NCBI GenBank assembly: GCA_902587325.1
Contig: CACIKV010000002.1
Coordinates: forward strand, 62,001-126,000
Length of the DNA: 64,000 nt
Direction: 5' to 3'
Source of the DNA: an uncultured Bacteroidota bacterium
Lineage (GTDB): Bacteria > Bacteroidota > Bacteroidia > Flavobacteriales > Flavobacteriaceae
Below are positions 45,245 through 50,909 of the stretch, in pieces. A model generated the notes under the pieces. It saw only the letters and a program-made list of their open reading frames with translations. It was not told where the DNA came from and did not search any database. The first letter of the stretch is position 1, and each line of letters begins with the position of its first letter. A program made the position numbers and the translations under genes.

Positions 45245-46828
45245 TTACCTTTTCTTAGGTTTACTAGTGTTCCTAGCCTCTCCAAGATATGACATCGCAC
45301 ATCTAAAACCTATAAAATTTGTAGTCATGTATTCAGGGTAGAATCTTCTTTGAGCAGGGTCTAAATAATAAGATCGGTCAAGCCATGAGCCACCTTTATA
45401 AACTCTCGATTCGTTACTAATAAGTGAAGTACTATTAATCGAAGAGTTACCATCAGGGTTCATTGGAGAATTATACATAGATTGATCTTTAGTTTCACCT
45501 GCTGTATAAAATCTTGATGACTCAGAATCTCCATCTCTGTAGCTTCTGTTATCAGCAGAACTGTAATTGGTTCTCATAAGGTCAGTTTCATCTAAATCAA
45601 CTTCGACTAAATCCCCAGGTAAATTTTGAATGTATATTCTACCGTTAGGTAAAATTGAATCAACAAATGTTTCTCTAGTTACAGTAGTTACTCTTCCATC
45701 TTCAGAAATTAATGGTTTACTATATAAATTTCCTCTGTAGTAATTAAAATCATTAGCTTCTTCGTCAATAATTGGTCTGTATACATCAGCCACCCATTCA
45801 GACACATTACCAGCCATACCAAATAAACCAAAACTATTCGGAGGATAAGATCTAACAGATGTTGTAATTCCTGAACCAGTTTCTGACCAACCAGCAATTC
45901 CACCATAATCACCTTTTCCTAATTTGTAATTAGCTAATTGATCACCTAACGTCTTTTTTTTCTGAGATCTAGTATATTCACCTTGCCAAGGAAATTTTTT
46001 CTTTCCTCTGTATAGATTACCATCTCTTAATTCACCAAGACCTAAAGCAGCATATTCCCATTCTGTTTCAGTTGGAAGTCTATACTCTGGTAAAATGAGT
46101 CCATTTTCGATTGAGGAATGAATAGTGTCATTTTCTGTAATTGATTTATCTCCAATAACAGATGAAATATTACCATCATATGTTTTTGATGGATCTAGTA
46201 AATATGTTTTAGTATTAAAGGATAGTTTTGAGTTAGGATTCAGGACAGAATCACGATTAAGAAAGCCTTTTTCAGCAAGGATTCTTTCATTAACTCTGTT
46301 AGTTCTCCATTTTGCAAAATTATTTGCTTGATGCCAGCTAACTCCAACTACTGGATGATTTTGAAAAGCAGGATGTCTAAGGTAATTATTTACCATATCC
46401 TCATTAAAACCGAGAGGATTCCTCCAAACAAGGGTGTCTGGAAGTGCAGCAACATATATTTTTTTAAGTTCTTCATCACCACCATACATTCTTTTTAACC
46501 AATCAATATATTCTAAATACATAATATTGGTAACCTCAGTTTCATCCATGAAAAAAGATCTAACATATTGCTGAGTTGGAGTATTGTTCCAATCATGCAT
46601 CACGTTGTCTTTGGTATTACCTTTGACAAAAGTTCCACCCTGAACGAATATCATTCCAGGGGCATTTTGTTGTCCTCTGTATTTTGTTTCGGCTTGAAAT
46701 CCTCCTTCAGAATTAATTTTCCAACCTGTTGCTTGAGATATATTTTTACCAGCTTTATAATTGTTTCGACTGCAACCAATCAACATGATAAGGGCAAATG
46801 AAAATAGAATTATATAGGATTTTTTCAT
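45245..46828 (-). CDS. gldJ: Gliding motility lipoprotein GldJ
   Basis: A 527-residue lipoprotein (signal LFSFALIMLIGC). The sequence contains an FGE/sulfatase-modifying-like fold with GTFVKGNTKDNVMHDWNNTPTQ (split across the loop), SFFMDETEVTNIMYLEYIDWL, WEYAALGLGE, and the C-terminal WLDRSYYLDPAQRRFYPEYM, all typical of GldJ. GldJ is an outer-membrane lipoprotein needed for T9SS assembly and gliding, and relatives stabilise GldK. It sits upstream of murF as in flavobacteria. The gene that normally diverges from it, porU, is absent. Confidence 0.93.
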   Translation of the reverse strand: MKKSYIILFSFALIMLIGCSRNNYKAGKNISQATGWKINSEGGFQAETKYRGQQNAPGMIFVQGGTFVKGNTKDNVMHDWNNTPTQQYVRSFFMDETEVTNIMYLEYIDWLKRMYGGDEELKKIYVAALPDTLVWRNPLGFNEDMVNNYLRHPAFQNHPVVGVSWHQANNFAKWRTNRVNERILAEKGFLNRDSVLNPNSKLSFNTKTYLLDPSKTYDGNISSVIGDKSITENDTIHSSIENGLILPEYRLPTETEWEYAALGLGELRDGNLYRGKKKFPWQGEYTRSQKKKTLGDQLANYKLGKGDYGGIAGWSETGSGITTSVRSYPPNSFGLFGMAGNVSEWVADVYRPIIDEEANDFNYYRGNLYSKPLISEDGRVTTVTRETFVDSILPNGRIYIQNLPGDLVEVDLDETDLMRTNYSSADNRSYRDGDSESSRFYTAGETKDQSMYNSPMNPDGNSSINSTSLISNESRVYKGGSWLDRSYYLDPAQRRFYPEYMTTNFIGFRCAMSYLGEARNTSKPKKR

Positions 46829-47015
46829 AGAATCGATTGTAAATATATGAAGATTGATTAAAAAATAATTACTTCATTAATAAAATCGCAATAATCAGAC
46901 CATAATTTTTTAGTTAAATACAGTTATTATTTAAAAGAGATTAATTAAAAAACTATATTAAATAATTAAAAAAATCGTGATATAATTTATTGGTATTATA
47001 TTTATAAATCTTTAA

Positions 47016-48146
47016 ATGAAAAAAATATTAATTTTTATTTCACTCTTTACGGCATTCCTGGGTTATTCACAGAAAGAAAGGAGAGTCATAACTACAGCTG
47101 TTCCATTTTTAATGATTTCCTCTGATGCTAGGGCCTCTGGAATTGGAGAACAGGGAGTTGCTACTTCATTTGATAATTTTTCACAACATTGGAATCCCTC
47201 AAAATACGTATTCTCAGAAAATTCCTCTGGTTTTGGTTTTAGCTATACACCTTATTTGAGTAAAATTGTAAATGATGTTTTCCTAGGAAATTTGACATAT
47301 TATAGAAAAAACTCTGAAAGATCAGCTTGGAGTTTCAGCTTAAAGTATTTTAGCCTTGGAGATATAGATGTGTTACAAAACCCTTTGGATATCCCAATCA
47401 TTGAAAGTCCAAATGAATTTACCATAGATGCGGGCTACTCTTTAAAATTAAACGAAAATTTTGGTCTCGGAATTACCGGAAGATTTTTACTCTCCGATGT
47501 AAAACTTCAGTCTTTTGATGCTGAGTCTCAAGCTGCCACCAGTGTTGCAGTCGATATATCAGGATTTTTTCAATCGGATATCGTAACAATCGGAAGAAGT
47601 AATGGAATCTTAAGAGCTGGATTTAATATTTCTAATTTAGGTCCTAAGATGAAATATACGGACTTAGGTCAAGAAAGTTTTATTCCAACAAACTTAAAAA
47701 TTGGATCTGGGTTTGAGTTTTTCTCTGATAATAGCAACAGCTTAACTGTCTCATTTGAAATTAATAAGTTATTGGTACCAACACCAAGTATTCCAATTTA
47801 CGACTCTTCAGAAACAGAAATAATTGCTTACCGACAAGATGATATTGGTTTTTTAAGTGGAATTTTTAAATCATTTGGAGATGCTCCGGATGGTTCATCA
47901 GAGGAACTGAAAGAATTAACCTACAGCTTTGGTTTAGAATATTCTTTTAACGAATCCTTTTTCTTAAGATCAGGATATTTTAGTGAGCATGAGCTAAAGG
48001 GATCTAGAAAGTTCATAACCCTTGGAACAGGCTTTAAAACTAACTCAAATTTATCTATTGATCTTTCTTATTTAATTTCCACGTCGGAGATTATAAGCCC
48101 ACTGGAGAACACTCTAAGATTTTCTTTATCATATAACTTGTTTTAA
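47016..48146 (+). CDS. porV: Type IX secretion outer-membrane protein PorV
   Basis: A 376-residue FadL-like beta-barrel protein with a signal peptide (ILIFISLFTAFLGYSQ). The sequence RRVITTAVPFLMISSDARASGIGEQG is a PorV hallmark; ATSFDNFSQHWNPSKYVF and barrel strands to the C-terminal LRFSLSYNLF follow. PorV is a shuttle that carries cargo from the SprA translocon to the PorU sortase. Usually porU precedes porV directly; here a 187-base gap without coding potential precedes it. Start ATG at 47016. Confidence 0.9.
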   Translation: MKKILIFISLFTAFLGYSQKERRVITTAVPFLMISSDARASGIGEQGVATSFDNFSQHWNPSKYVFSENSSGFGFSYTPYLSKIVNDVFLGNLTYYRKNSERSAWSFSLKYFSLGDIDVLQNPLDIPIIESPNEFTIDAGYSLKLNENFGLGITGRFLLSDVKLQSFDAESQAATSVAVDISGFFQSDIVTIGRSNGILRAGFNISNLGPKMKYTDLGQESFIPTNLKIGSGFEFFSDNSNSLTVSFEINKLLVPTPSIPIYDSSETEIIAYRQDDIGFLSGIFKSFGDAPDGSSEELKELTYSFGLEYSFNESFFLRSGYFSEHELKGSRKFITLGTGFKTNSNLSIDLSYLISTSEIISPLENTLRFSLSYNLF

Positions 48147-48195
48147 TCAAGAAAAAAACATTATTCTAATTAAGAATTAAGTAATTTTTTTAAAT

Positions 48196-48203
48196 TATCT
48201 TTG
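48196..48203 (+). promoter_or_regulatory. Candidate -7 box for pdhA
   Basis: TATCTTTG matches TANNTTTG and lies 11 bases before the ATG at 48215. No TTG with correct spacing is obvious upstream. Confidence 0.45.
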
Positions 48204-48214
48204 CTCATAATTCT

Positions 48215-49214: not shown

Positions 49215-49860
49215 ATGGCTGAAGTAATTAAAATGCCCAGATTGAGTGATACCATGGAAGAGGGTGTGGTAGCTACTTGGTTAAAAAAAGTTGGAGACAA
49301 GGTTGAGGAAGGTGAAATTTTAGCAGAAATTGAAACTGATAAAGCTACAATGGAGTTCGAGTCCTTTTATGAGGGTACATTGTTACATATAGAAATTCAG
49401 GAGGGTATTACTGCTACTGTAGACTCTTTATTGTGTATTATTGGAGAAGAAGGGGAGGATATTTCTCAATTTCTAGTTCCAGTAAATGAATCATTGCCAA
49501 CATCAAGTGATAATAATCAACTCGATTTAGTTGATCAGATTAATGAACAAGAAAGTACAGAAACTGTGGATCCAGTTACATCTTTAACCTCTGATAAAAC
49601 TGATGATGTAACAAATGAAAGTGGGTCTATTGATTATATTACAATGCCCAGACTGAGTGATACAATGGAAGAAGGAACAATTTCTAGCTGGTTAAAAAAT
49701 GTTGGAGATAAAGTAAGTGAAGGTGAAATTTTAGCTGAAATTGAAACTGATAAAGCTACAATGGAATTTGAGTCTTTTTATGATGGAATACTAAGTCACA
49801 TTGCTGTACAAGCAGGAGAAACTGTAAATGTTGATGAATTAATTGCAATTATTTCTGAAG
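49215..49860 (+). repeat. Tandem lipoyl-domain repeat within pdhC
   Basis: The stretches around 49310-49370 and 49721-49781 both encode EGEILAEIETDKATMEFESF with only a few silent differences (for example GAGTTCGAG against GAATTTGAG). This points to a recent duplication or gene conversion between the two lipoyl domains. Confidence 0.7.
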
Positions 49861-50909
49861 GGGAGATAGATGTTACAAAAGCTCTTGAAAATTATTCAAA
49901 AGAACCTATTGAACCTTCGACAGAAACAAAATCTGATGTTGAAACTAATGAAGAAGAGACTAGCTCTGTTGAAGTTGACGTAATTCCAGAAGTATCAATT
50001 TCTGATAAGAGAATTTTTGCTTCACCATTAGCAAAAAAAATTGCTAATGAAAAAAATATTGATCTCTCTCAAATAACTGGTTCAGGTGAAAATGGTCGAA
50101 TAGTAAAAGAAGATCTTGAAAATATAAATGTTTCTGAAAAAGTTCCTCCCGTGCTAGTCAGCGAACCTTCTTCAGTAAGCCAACCTGATGTTAATTTAGC
50201 ACCTGTCAAGCCAGTTTTTAATGATGGTGAAGAATTTACTGAAATTGAAAATTCTTCAATGAGAAAAGCAATTGCAAAAAATTTAAGTAAATCTAAATTT
50301 TCTGCACCGCATTATTACTTGTCAGTTGAATTTAATATGGACAATGCAATCGCATTTAGAGAACAATATAATTCAATGCCCAATACTAAAATTTCATTCA
50401 ATGATATAATTATCAAGGCATGTGCTATTGCATTAAAAGCTCACCCACAAGTAAATTCTCAGTGGTATGATGATAAGATTAGATTAAATAATATTGTTAA
50501 CATAGGAGTTGCTGTTGGAATTGAAGATGGTTTAGTGGTTCCTGTTATTAAGAATGCTGATATGGAATCTTTACACAATATAAATAGCACAGTTAGAGAT
50601 TATGCAGTAAGAGCTAAATCAAAAAAATTAAGACCAGATGAAATTGAGGGAAGTACCTTTACAATCTCTAATTTAGGCATGTTCGGTATTCAGGAATTTA
50701 CGTCAATTATTAATCAACCAAACTCAGCTATTTTATCTGTTGGAACCATAGTAAAAAAACCAATTGTTGTTAATGAAAAAATTGTAGTAGGAAATACCAT
50801 GAAATTAACATTAGCTTGTGATCATCGATCTGTTGACGGTGTTACTGGCTCATTGTTTTTACAAACTCTCAAAGGTTACATTGAAAACCCTGTTACAATT
50901 TTAGTATAA
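49215..50909 (+). CDS. pdhC: Pyruvate dehydrogenase E2 (dihydrolipoamide acetyltransferase) with two lipoyl domains
   Basis: A 564-residue E2. Two lipoyl domains lie at about residues 1-78 and 142-218, each with the lipoylation lysine in ETDKATMEFES. An acidic, proline/serine-rich linker, a peripheral subunit-binding domain near 268-303 (FASPLAKKIANEKNIDLSQI), and the catalytic acetyltransferase domain (about 335-564) with the DHRSVDGVTG motif follow. It transfers acetyl groups to CoA. The two lipoyl repeats are strikingly alike at DNA level. It is co-transcribed with pdhA. Confidence 0.94.
   Translation: MAEVIKMPRLSDTMEEGVVATWLKKVGDKVEEGEILAEIETDKATMEFESFYEGTLLHIEIQEGITATVDSLLCIIGEEGEDISQFLVPVNESLPTSSDNNQLDLVDQINEQESTETVDPVTSLTSDKTDDVTNESGSIDYITMPRLSDTMEEGTISSWLKNVGDKVSEGEILAEIETDKATMEFESFYDGILSHIAVQAGETVNVDELIAIISEGEIDVTKALENYSKEPIEPSTETKSDVETNEEETSSVEVDVIPEVSISDKRIFASPLAKKIANEKNIDLSQITGSGENGRIVKEDLENINVSEKVPPVLVSEPSSVSQPDVNLAPVKPVFNDGEEFTEIENSSMRKAIAKNLSKSKFSAPHYYLSVEFNMDNAIAFREQYNSMPNTKISFNDIIIKACAIALKAHPQVNSQWYDDKIRLNNIVNIGVAVGIEDGLVVPVIKNADMESLHNINSTVRDYAVRAKSKKLRPDEIEGSTFTISNLGMFGIQEFTSIINQPNSAILSVGTIVKKPIVVNEKIVVGNTMKLTLACDHRSVDGVTGSLFLQTLKGYIENPVTILV

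What the first reader, a model, noticed from the sequence alone, without database searches (positions are those of the whole stretch)
46829..47015. porU is missing between gldJ and porV
In well-studied flavobacteria such as F. johnsoniae, porU, the large T9SS sortase gene, lies between gldJ and porV. Here the two genes are separated by 187 non-coding bases, and a cytidine deaminase gene usually between porV and pdhA is also absent. Either porU moved, or this lineage has a reduced T9SS without the sortase.
Basis: partly seen in the sequence, partly recalled or inferred. Interest (0 to 1): 0.5.

Follow-up and report, generated by a model that had tools for sequence, protein, structure and literature searches.

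The report
Secretion system lacking its sortase module

Summary
Observation confirmed. gldJ (45245-46828, -) and porV (47016-48146, +) stand back to back across 187 A+T-rich bases with no porU remnant. PorU is not elsewhere: no C25 or full-length PorU match in the 23 genomes of the genus, though 21 have PorV, 18 SprA and 22 type A CTD cargo. So it is loss, not rearrangement, and not peculiar to this lineage. Of 199 family genomes (about one per genus) 65 lack PorU; of the 164 at least 90% complete, 109 have PorU+PorQ+PorZ+PorV, 51 PorV alone, 2 lack only PorQ, 2 lack all four. The PorQUZ attachment complex is thus lost as a block while the shuttle stays; the tree needs 6 changes. PorU-less genomes show fewer type A cargo proteins (median 8 against 27, capped at 27). 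PorQUZ absence is in print for Sphingobacteriia (PMC7323717), PorU+PorQ absence for two Flavobacteriaceae strains (PMC7440613); extent, block-like repetition, empty slot and cargo correlation I did not find in print. Most likely cargo keeps its CTD and stays on PorV; that step is inference.

The parts
46829..47015 (.). 187-base divergent intergenic region; the place where porU lies in PorU-bearing relatives
   Evidence: no PorU remnant; the gldJ-porV spacing is 3.55-4.37 kb in 45 of 46 PorU-bearing genomes examined
45245..46828 (-). gldJ, gliding motility / T9SS lipoprotein
   Evidence: TIGR03524 681 bits
47016..48146 (+). porV, outer-membrane shuttle of type A T9SS cargo
   Evidence: NF033710 484 bits
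43925..45202 (-). murF, conserved neighbour of gldJ
   Evidence: TIGR01143 367 bits
48215..49213 (+). pdhA, pyruvate dehydrogenase E1 alpha; 68 bases after porV, no gene between
   Evidence: TIGR03182 433 bits; spacing
49215..50909 (+). pdhC, pyruvate dehydrogenase E2
   Evidence: TIGR01349 517 bits

Best explanation
The window comes from a small-genome flavobacterium whose T9SS lost its attachment module (PorU sortase, PorQ barrel, PorZ carrier of anionic LPS) in the common ancestor of its genus and the sister genus g5, leaving gldJ and porV back to back. The translocon (SprA), the shuttle (PorV) and a few type A CTD cargo proteins remain. Shown: absence of PorU genus-wide; absence of PorQ and PorZ in the genomes tested; retention of SprA, PorV and cargo. 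Inferred: secretion still runs through SprA and PorV; the CTD is not cut off by PorU and nothing is joined to A-LPS; cargo stays on the surface because its uncleaved CTD remains bound to PorV, or is freed by some general protease. The module is lost or kept as a block, and most genomes without it keep few cargo proteins.
For: 0 of 23 genus genomes with PorU by PF01364 or over the NF033707 cut-off, while PorV is in 21 of 23, SprA in 18 of 23 (a 2350-aa frame without stops in the own genome) and TIGR04183 cargo in 22 of 23. 199 family genomes: PorU 134, PorV 193, PorQ 129, PorZ 131. Of 164 at least 90% complete: 109 U+Q+Z+V, 51 V alone, 2 U+Z+V, 2 none, no other combination. Gene order: 55 of 60 PorU-less, PorV-bearing genomes have divergent gldJ-porV with an estimated gap of 146-1091 bases; 45 of 46 PorU-bearing genomes examined have 3554-4368 bases with PorU between. 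Tree: window genus + G026 form one PorU-less clade (support 1.0) inside a clade (0.997) with PorU-bearing G088, G236, G209 and G112. Type A CTD counts: PorU-less median 8, PorU-bearing median 27 with 108 of 134 at the cap. In P. gingivalis the cargo that does reach the surface of a porU mutant keeps its CTD (PMC5053529, passage).
Against: In that same P. gingivalis porU mutant most cargo piled up in the periplasm (PMC5053529, passage), so PorU loss need not leave secretion intact. Own genome 84.8% complete, other genus genomes 55-87%. PorQ and PorZ were searched in only 2 of the 23 genus genomes (G000, G021) plus sister G026. GldK, L, M, N, SprE and SprT were not searched. SprA was not found in 5 of 23 genus genomes. 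Some PorU-less genomes have many CTDs (G023 33; G071 and G095 at the cap, G188 23, G228 21) and one PorV-bearing one has none (G068). The CTD profile may under-detect diverged CTDs in PorU-less lineages. A replacement CTD protease unrelated to PorU cannot be excluded. The independent-pair test of the cargo correlation gives 5 of 5 pairs, p = 0.0625.
Confidence: 0.7

Rival explanations
1. porU moved elsewhere in the genome (simple rearrangement) or lies in the unassembled part.
For: The own assembly is 84.8% complete in 51 contigs.
Against: No genus genome has it (0 of 23; joint chance about 6e-14 if gaps are independent); PorQ and PorZ are absent too in G000, G021 and G026. Single-contig relatives of 99-100% completeness lack PorU as well: G077 is listed without a match, G101, G187 and G188 follow by subtraction from its list (sizes).
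Confidence: 0.03
2. PorU was replaced by an unrelated protease or transpeptidase that trims and anchors type A cargo, so the system is functionally complete.
For: Type A CTDs persist in 63 of 65 PorU-less genomes, sometimes in numbers (G023, 33). PMC7323717 names this alternative for Sphingobacteriia (passages).
Against: In 55 of 60 PorU-less genomes the vacated slot (146-1091 bases) is too short for a large protease; ORFs in these gaps were not examined one by one except in G125, the widest (nothing over 117 aa at the gap). Absence of PorZ and PorQ together with PorU suggests that the attachment step itself was given up. Cargo numbers are lower. A replacement encoded elsewhere was not searched for.
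Confidence: 0.22
3. The T9SS of this genus is decaying: PorV and the rest are on the way out as genomes shrink.
For: Small genome (1.475 Mb), few cargo proteins (3 matches in G000). Two small family members at least 90% complete lack PorV altogether (G231, G109), and G231 has no CTD match.
Against: PorV, GldJ and SprA are long open frames with strong scores. PorU is missing also from genomes of 3-6 Mb, and PorU-bearing genomes of 1.3-1.9 Mb exist, so shrinkage alone does not explain it. Selection on these genes was not measured.
Confidence: 0.12

Closest known systems
T9SS of Sphingobacteriia without PorQ, PorU and PorZ (PMC7323717; passages and section 16 seen)
   Same: Other components present, the three 'modification components' missing together; the authors suggest that cargo stays on PorV with its CTD.
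   Different: There it is stated for a whole class; here it recurs clade by clade inside one family, with gene-order evidence, PorU-bearing relatives, and lower cargo numbers.
Flavobacteriaceae strains Aa_F7 and DN50 without PorU and PorQ (PMC7440613; passages seen)
   Same: No porU homologue beside gldJ, PorQ missing too, other gliding and T9SS proteins present; both strains still spread.
   Different: Two strains; the term PorZ does not occur in the paper (count 0); there hypothetical genes lie directly beside gldJ, here the slot is empty in this and 9 other genomes of the genus.
F. johnsoniae / P. gingivalis T9SS with PorV and the PorQUZ attachment complex
   Same: PorV, GldJ and SprA orthologues; same gene neighbourhood apart from porU (F. 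johnsoniae order as described in PMC7440613, passage).
   Different: No PorU, PorQ or PorZ.

Membership tests
Type IX secretion system (T9SS) | SprA/Sov translocon | tested here: met
   TIGR04189 in G000 (two pieces of one 2350-aa frame, 1988.6 and 371.6 bits) and in 18 of 23 genus genomes
Type IX secretion system (T9SS) | PorV shuttle | tested here: met
   NF033710 484 bits in the window; 21 of 23 genus genomes
Type IX secretion system (T9SS) | cargo with type A CTD | tested here: met
   TIGR04183: 3 matches in G000, 22 of 23 genus genomes; two G000 proteins scanned, 39.2 and 23.6 bits to PF18962 (cut-off 27), 32.0 and 24.9 to TIGR04183 (cut-off 23)
Type IX secretion system (T9SS) | GldK/L/M/N motor and ring | not tested
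   no search made; GldJ is present
T9SS attachment complex PorQUZ | PorU sortase (C25, over 1000 aa) | tested here: not met
   0 of 23 genus genomes
T9SS attachment complex PorQUZ | PorQ barrel (NF033711) | tested here: not met
   no match at E <= 1e-50 in G000, G021, G026; other genus members not searched
T9SS attachment complex PorQUZ | PorZ (PF21544, N-terminal propeller) | tested here: not met
   no match at E <= 1e-8 in G000, G021, G026; other genus members not searched
T9SS without attachment complex (Sphingobacteriia type) | T9SS core present, PorQ, PorU and PorZ all absent | tested here: met
   core tested by SprA and PorV only
T9SS without attachment complex (Sphingobacteriia type) | cargo displayed with uncleaved CTD (a suggestion in PMC7323717, not shown there) | not testable with these tools
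   needs proteomics

The most novel reading that the evidence does not exclude
PorQUZ is a detachable cassette of the T9SS. It has been lost as a block several times within Flavobacteriaceae, turning the T9SS from a cleave-and-anchor machine into one in which PorV itself is the terminal anchor for uncleaved type A cargo. Each PorV then holds one cargo molecule instead of recycling, so the machine supports few cargo proteins; this would explain the lower type A cargo number of the PorU-less partner in all five independent pairs that the tree allows.
Probability: 0.35. Interest if true: 0.7.

Novelty: new member of a known kind. Interest (0 to 1): 0.5.

Why it matters
A review describes PorU cleavage in the PorQUZ complex as the last step of type A secretion, with the attachment module present in 'many species' (PMC10202324, passages). 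If about a third of Flavobacteriaceae genera have none of PorU, PorQ and PorZ but keep PorV and CTD cargo, PorU cleavage is not needed for type A secretion in nature, and PorU-less strains allow a direct test of what holds or frees the cargo. The one-cargo-per-PorV idea makes a countable prediction.

Tried and rejected
1) Weak NF033707 matches in the genus (13-26 bits, profile positions 984-1094) looked at first like diverged PorU. Each lies on a TIGR04183 match (for G000), and the large one scanned (L108, 1454 aa) has PA, thrombospondin-3 and Por_Secre_tail domains and no C25: cargo, not sortase. tblastn with three PorU proteins found none in the 36 stretches (E <= 1e-5).

2) Genes between gldJ and porV in some genus members (2.8-4.4 kb) were checked as possible PorU. 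In L031 they are a 155-aa CTD protein and a collagen-like protein with an S74 chaperone end; L022, L027, L030 and L032 were judged alike by eye; in L049 they are a 751-aa protein with a borderline CTD (27.7 bits against Pfam's cut-off of 27, 22.6 against NCBIfam's 23) and a 362-aa protein. Not PorU.

3) Genome streamlining as sufficient cause: rejected, since PorU-bearing genomes of 1.3-1.9 Mb and PorU-less genomes of 3-6 Mb exist.

4) Gain rather than loss: Fitch parsimony rooted on G038 (itself PorU-less) gives 'absent' at the root with 6 changes; without regain 10 losses are counted. I prefer loss because porU stands next to porV also in other families (L001-L004, L006) and as PG0026/PG0027 in P. 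gingivalis (Table 1 of PMC5053529, passage). One long-branched outgroup and four linked genes leave the root uncertain; G187's place has support 0.099.

5) Limits of the survey: the 199 genomes are drawn evenly from a larger group; cut-offs were E <= 1e-60 (PorU), 1e-80 (PorV), 1e-50 (PorQ), 1e-8 (PorZ). PorU-less genomes not listed were derived by subtraction. Handles, CTD counts and completeness classes were copied by hand; the sums reproduce the tool's tallies (111, 109, 111 and 162 of 164). One search scores at most 27 candidates per genome, so 27 is a lower bound and smaller counts may also be slightly low. The Mann-Whitney p of 2e-29 ignores relatedness and is not used. The split at 15 CTDs for the pair test was my choice. 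Five of 126 rows had too few genes and were left out of the tree (by their absence: G061, G068, G080, G202, G173). In one search genus members other than G000 and G021, and G038, print 'False' only because they are not in the family sample.

6) Literature: 7 full-text searches. McBride & Zhu 2013 is not held, so I cannot say whether its tables show the pattern. That the extent is not in print rests on these searches only. Figures and supplements of PMC7440613 and PMC7323717, which may show more, were not seen.

Full report
What is in the window. GldJ (45245-46828, -; TIGR03524, 681 bits) and PorV (47016-48146, +; NF033710, 484 bits) are long open frames, divergently transcribed across 187 bases, 46829-47015. 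That spacer is 15% G+C against 29% for the window, and PorU proteins of four relatives give no tblastn match better than E = 1.1 in it or 300 bases to either side. Promoter-like matches in 46700-47100 are only somewhat above shuffles (6 against 3.8, sd 1.6), so nothing is claimed from them. murF follows gldJ, pdhA and pdhC follow porV. The 68 bases between porV and pdhA hold no gene; in G023 and G034 the gene there is a cytidine deaminase (TIGR01354).

PorU is not elsewhere. The window lies in G000, 1,475,136 bases in 51 contigs, 84.8% complete. Peptidase C25 (PF01364) is found in 0 of 23 genus genomes (G000-G022) and in 26 of the 60 genomes of that search. The full PorU model NF033707 reaches its cut-off in 9 of 42 genomes searched, none of them of the genus. 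The weak genus matches cover only the C-terminal end of the profile and lie on type A CTDs of cargo. PorV is over its cut-off in 21 of 23 genus genomes (40 of 44 in the whole search), SprA in 18 of 23 (35 of 42), TIGR04183 in 22 of 23 (31 of 33). If PorU were in every genus member and gaps fell independently, the chance of missing it in all 23 is about 6e-14. So the gene is lost, not moved.

Cargo is present. TIGR04183 has three matches in G000, of which one place is listed, at the end of a 2415-aa frame; the 1490 aa of it that I scanned hold six FG-GAP stretches and Por_Secre_tail, 39 bits against a cut-off of 27. A CTD protein reached through one search is a 533-aa DUF1501 protein directly after a DUF1800 gene; its CTD is over the NCBIfam cut-off (24.9 against 23) and under Pfam's (23.6 against 27).

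It is a family-wide pattern. In one sample of 199 genomes of the same family, about one per genus, PorU is found in 134, PorV in 193, PorQ in 129 and PorZ's N-terminal propeller in 131. Among the 164 that are at least 90% complete and at most 5% contaminated, 109 have PorU, PorQ, PorZ and PorV; 51 have PorV alone; 2 have PorU, PorZ and PorV without PorQ (G176, G191); 2 have none (G109, G231). Mixed cases among the others are PorU without PorQ in G124, G157, G205 and G214, PorU without PorZ in G157, G185 and G236, and PorQ without PorU in G128, which also lacks PorV. The attachment complex therefore behaves as one block. Outside the family G038, G044, G047 and G057 likewise have SprA and PorV but no PorU over the cut-off.

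Gene order. All 60 PorU-less, PorV-bearing genomes of the sample were inspected, 59 as fetched stretches and G000 in the window. In 55 gldJ lies on the same stretch, divergent, at an estimated 146-1091 bases from porV; in 5 (G021, G061, G068, G080, G110) no gldJ was found on the stretch, in G021, G080 and G110 with the contig ending within 2.5 kb. Of 46 PorU-bearing genomes examined (of 134), 45 have gldJ 3554-4368 bases from porV with PorU between; in G173 gldJ was not on the stretch. The short porV-pdhA spacing of the window is shared by six small PorU-bearing genomes (G112, G209, G236, G100, G137, G088: 86-168 bases), not by G091 (700), so it does not go with PorU.

Within the genus the slot is empty in 10 of 21 genomes with PorV (G000, G002, G003, G004, G011, G014, G017, G018, G020, G022) and holds other genes in 6 (G001, G005, G007, G008, G009, G019); in 5 (G006, G010, G013, G015, G021) no gldJ is on the stretch. 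Nineteen of the named loci (L017-L022, L024-L033, L035, L036, L049) have contigs of the same length as stretches fetched from the genus, so I take them as the same records: MAGs and other assemblies titled uncultured Bacteroidetes, Flavobacteriaceae or 'Cryomorphaceae' bacterium, such as MED-G60, MED-G61, MED851 and AG-894-L20. That these are marine, and the AG series single-cell genomes, is recalled, not from a call. In L031 the inserted genes are a 155-aa protein with a type A CTD (PF18962, 38.6 bits) and a 1240-aa protein with collagen repeats and a Peptidase_S74 end that stops about 20 bases before porV. The sister-genus genome G026 has the empty slot, so the refilling is probably secondary.

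Evolution. A tree of PorV, GldJ, PdhA and PdhC (121 of 126 rows) puts the window genus and G026 in one PorU-less clade (support 1.0), nested in a clade (0.997) with the PorU-bearing small genomes G088, G236, G209 and G112. Other PorU-less groups are a 32-genome clade (0.993), G029+G156+G076+G145 inside PorU-bearing genomes (1.0), ten genera with genomes of 1.6-2.2 Mb (1.0), G188+G075 (0.995), G122+G139 (0.933), and single rows G092, G187 (weakly placed), G210 and the outgroup G038. Parsimony needs 6 changes; with no regain 10 losses are counted. With the family rows alone (101) the tree program also gives 6 changes. The root rests on one long-branched outgroup, so these are estimates.

Cargo numbers. 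TIGR04183 matches per genome (at most 27 scored) have a median of 8 in 65 PorU-less genomes and 27 in 134 PorU-bearing ones, of which 108 are at the cap. In the 29 genomes of the sample of 2.0 Mb or less the ranges do not overlap: 9-27 in 13 PorU-bearing, 0-5 in 16 PorU-less. On the tree 5 of 5 independent supported pairs go the same way (p = 0.0625, the least that five pairs can give). Against this: four PorU-less genomes are at the cap (G023, G071, G095, and G128, which has PorQ and is probably an assembly gap), G188 has 23 and G228 21; PorU-bearing G189 has 7 and G225 9; PorV-bearing, PorU-less G068 has none; and the profile may miss diverged CTDs.

How it most likely works. In the published model PorV takes type A cargo out of SprA and hands it to PorQUZ, where PorU cuts the CTD and joins the cargo to A-LPS brought by PorZ, or releases it (PMC10202324, passages). 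Without PorU, PorQ and PorZ the hand-over has no recipient. The simplest outcome is that the uncleaved CTD stays on PorV, as PorU's own CTD does in P. gingivalis (same passages) and as suggested for Sphingobacteriia (PMC7323717, passages). These steps are inference. In print, for: cargo that reaches the surface of a P. gingivalis porU mutant keeps its CTD (PMC5053529, passage); porU deletion did not affect gliding of F. johnsoniae, and strains Aa_F7 and DN50 without PorU and PorQ still spread (PMC7440613, passages). Against: in the P. gingivalis mutant most cargo piled up in the periplasm (PMC5053529, same passage).

What is known and what is not. PorQUZ absence as a class trait (Sphingobacteriia, PMC7323717) and PorU+PorQ absence in two Flavobacteriaceae strains (PMC7440613) are in print. 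In seven full-text searches I did not find the family-wide extent, the all-or-none behaviour, the repeated losses at one gene slot or the cargo correlation; McBride & Zhu 2013, which may bear on it, is not held. I therefore file it as a new member of a known kind.

Noticed in passing
L031:5775-9980 and the like in L022, L027, L030, L032; partly L019, L024, L025, L026, L033: In about half of the genus (10 of 21 genomes with PorV) the stretch before porV holds, in porV's direction and ending within tens of bases of it, a collagen- or S74-like protein of varying length, preceded in the five with gldJ on the stretch by a 154-158-aa CTD protein. A surface fibre linked to the T9SS is conceivable. 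Only L031 was scanned with profiles; the rest judged by eye.
   Followed up: partly
L049:6139-9703: One species has in the same slot a 751-aa protein with a borderline CTD-like end and a minus-strand 362-aa protein with a weak match (29 bits, below the cut-off of 33) to the HPr kinase C-terminal domain.
   Followed up: no
L108:5560-14282 (also G002:C1, G014:C4, G021:C2, G022:C1): Several genus genomes carry two adjacent large CTD proteins (1.4-1.45 kaa; in G014 one frame is only 289 aa); the one scanned (L108:5560-9924) has PA, thrombospondin-3 and CTD domains. They may be a main T9SS cargo of the genus.
   Followed up: partly
L111:9403-13875 and L112:5108-8166: Cargo of the window's own genome: an FG-GAP repeat giant (frame of 2415 aa) and a DUF1800-DUF1501 gene pair whose DUF1501 member bears a weak CTD.
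   Followed up: partly
window 48147-48214: The gene between porV and pdhA (a cytidine deaminase in G023 and G034) is missing here and, judged by spacing, in several small family genomes with or without PorU; whether the gene survives elsewhere was not tested.
   Followed up: partly
G221:C60:9552-12662; G239:C17:6482-13908: G221 has, besides an intact PorU on another contig, a second one with two stop codons (profile positions 1-1010); G239 has two PorU frames without stops in tandem.
   Followed up: no
G109, G231, G068: G109 and G231 are small, nearly complete genomes without PorV, PorU, PorQ and PorZ (G231 also without CTD match, G109 with three); G068 has PorV but no CTD match: possible steps towards full T9SS loss.
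   Followed up: no
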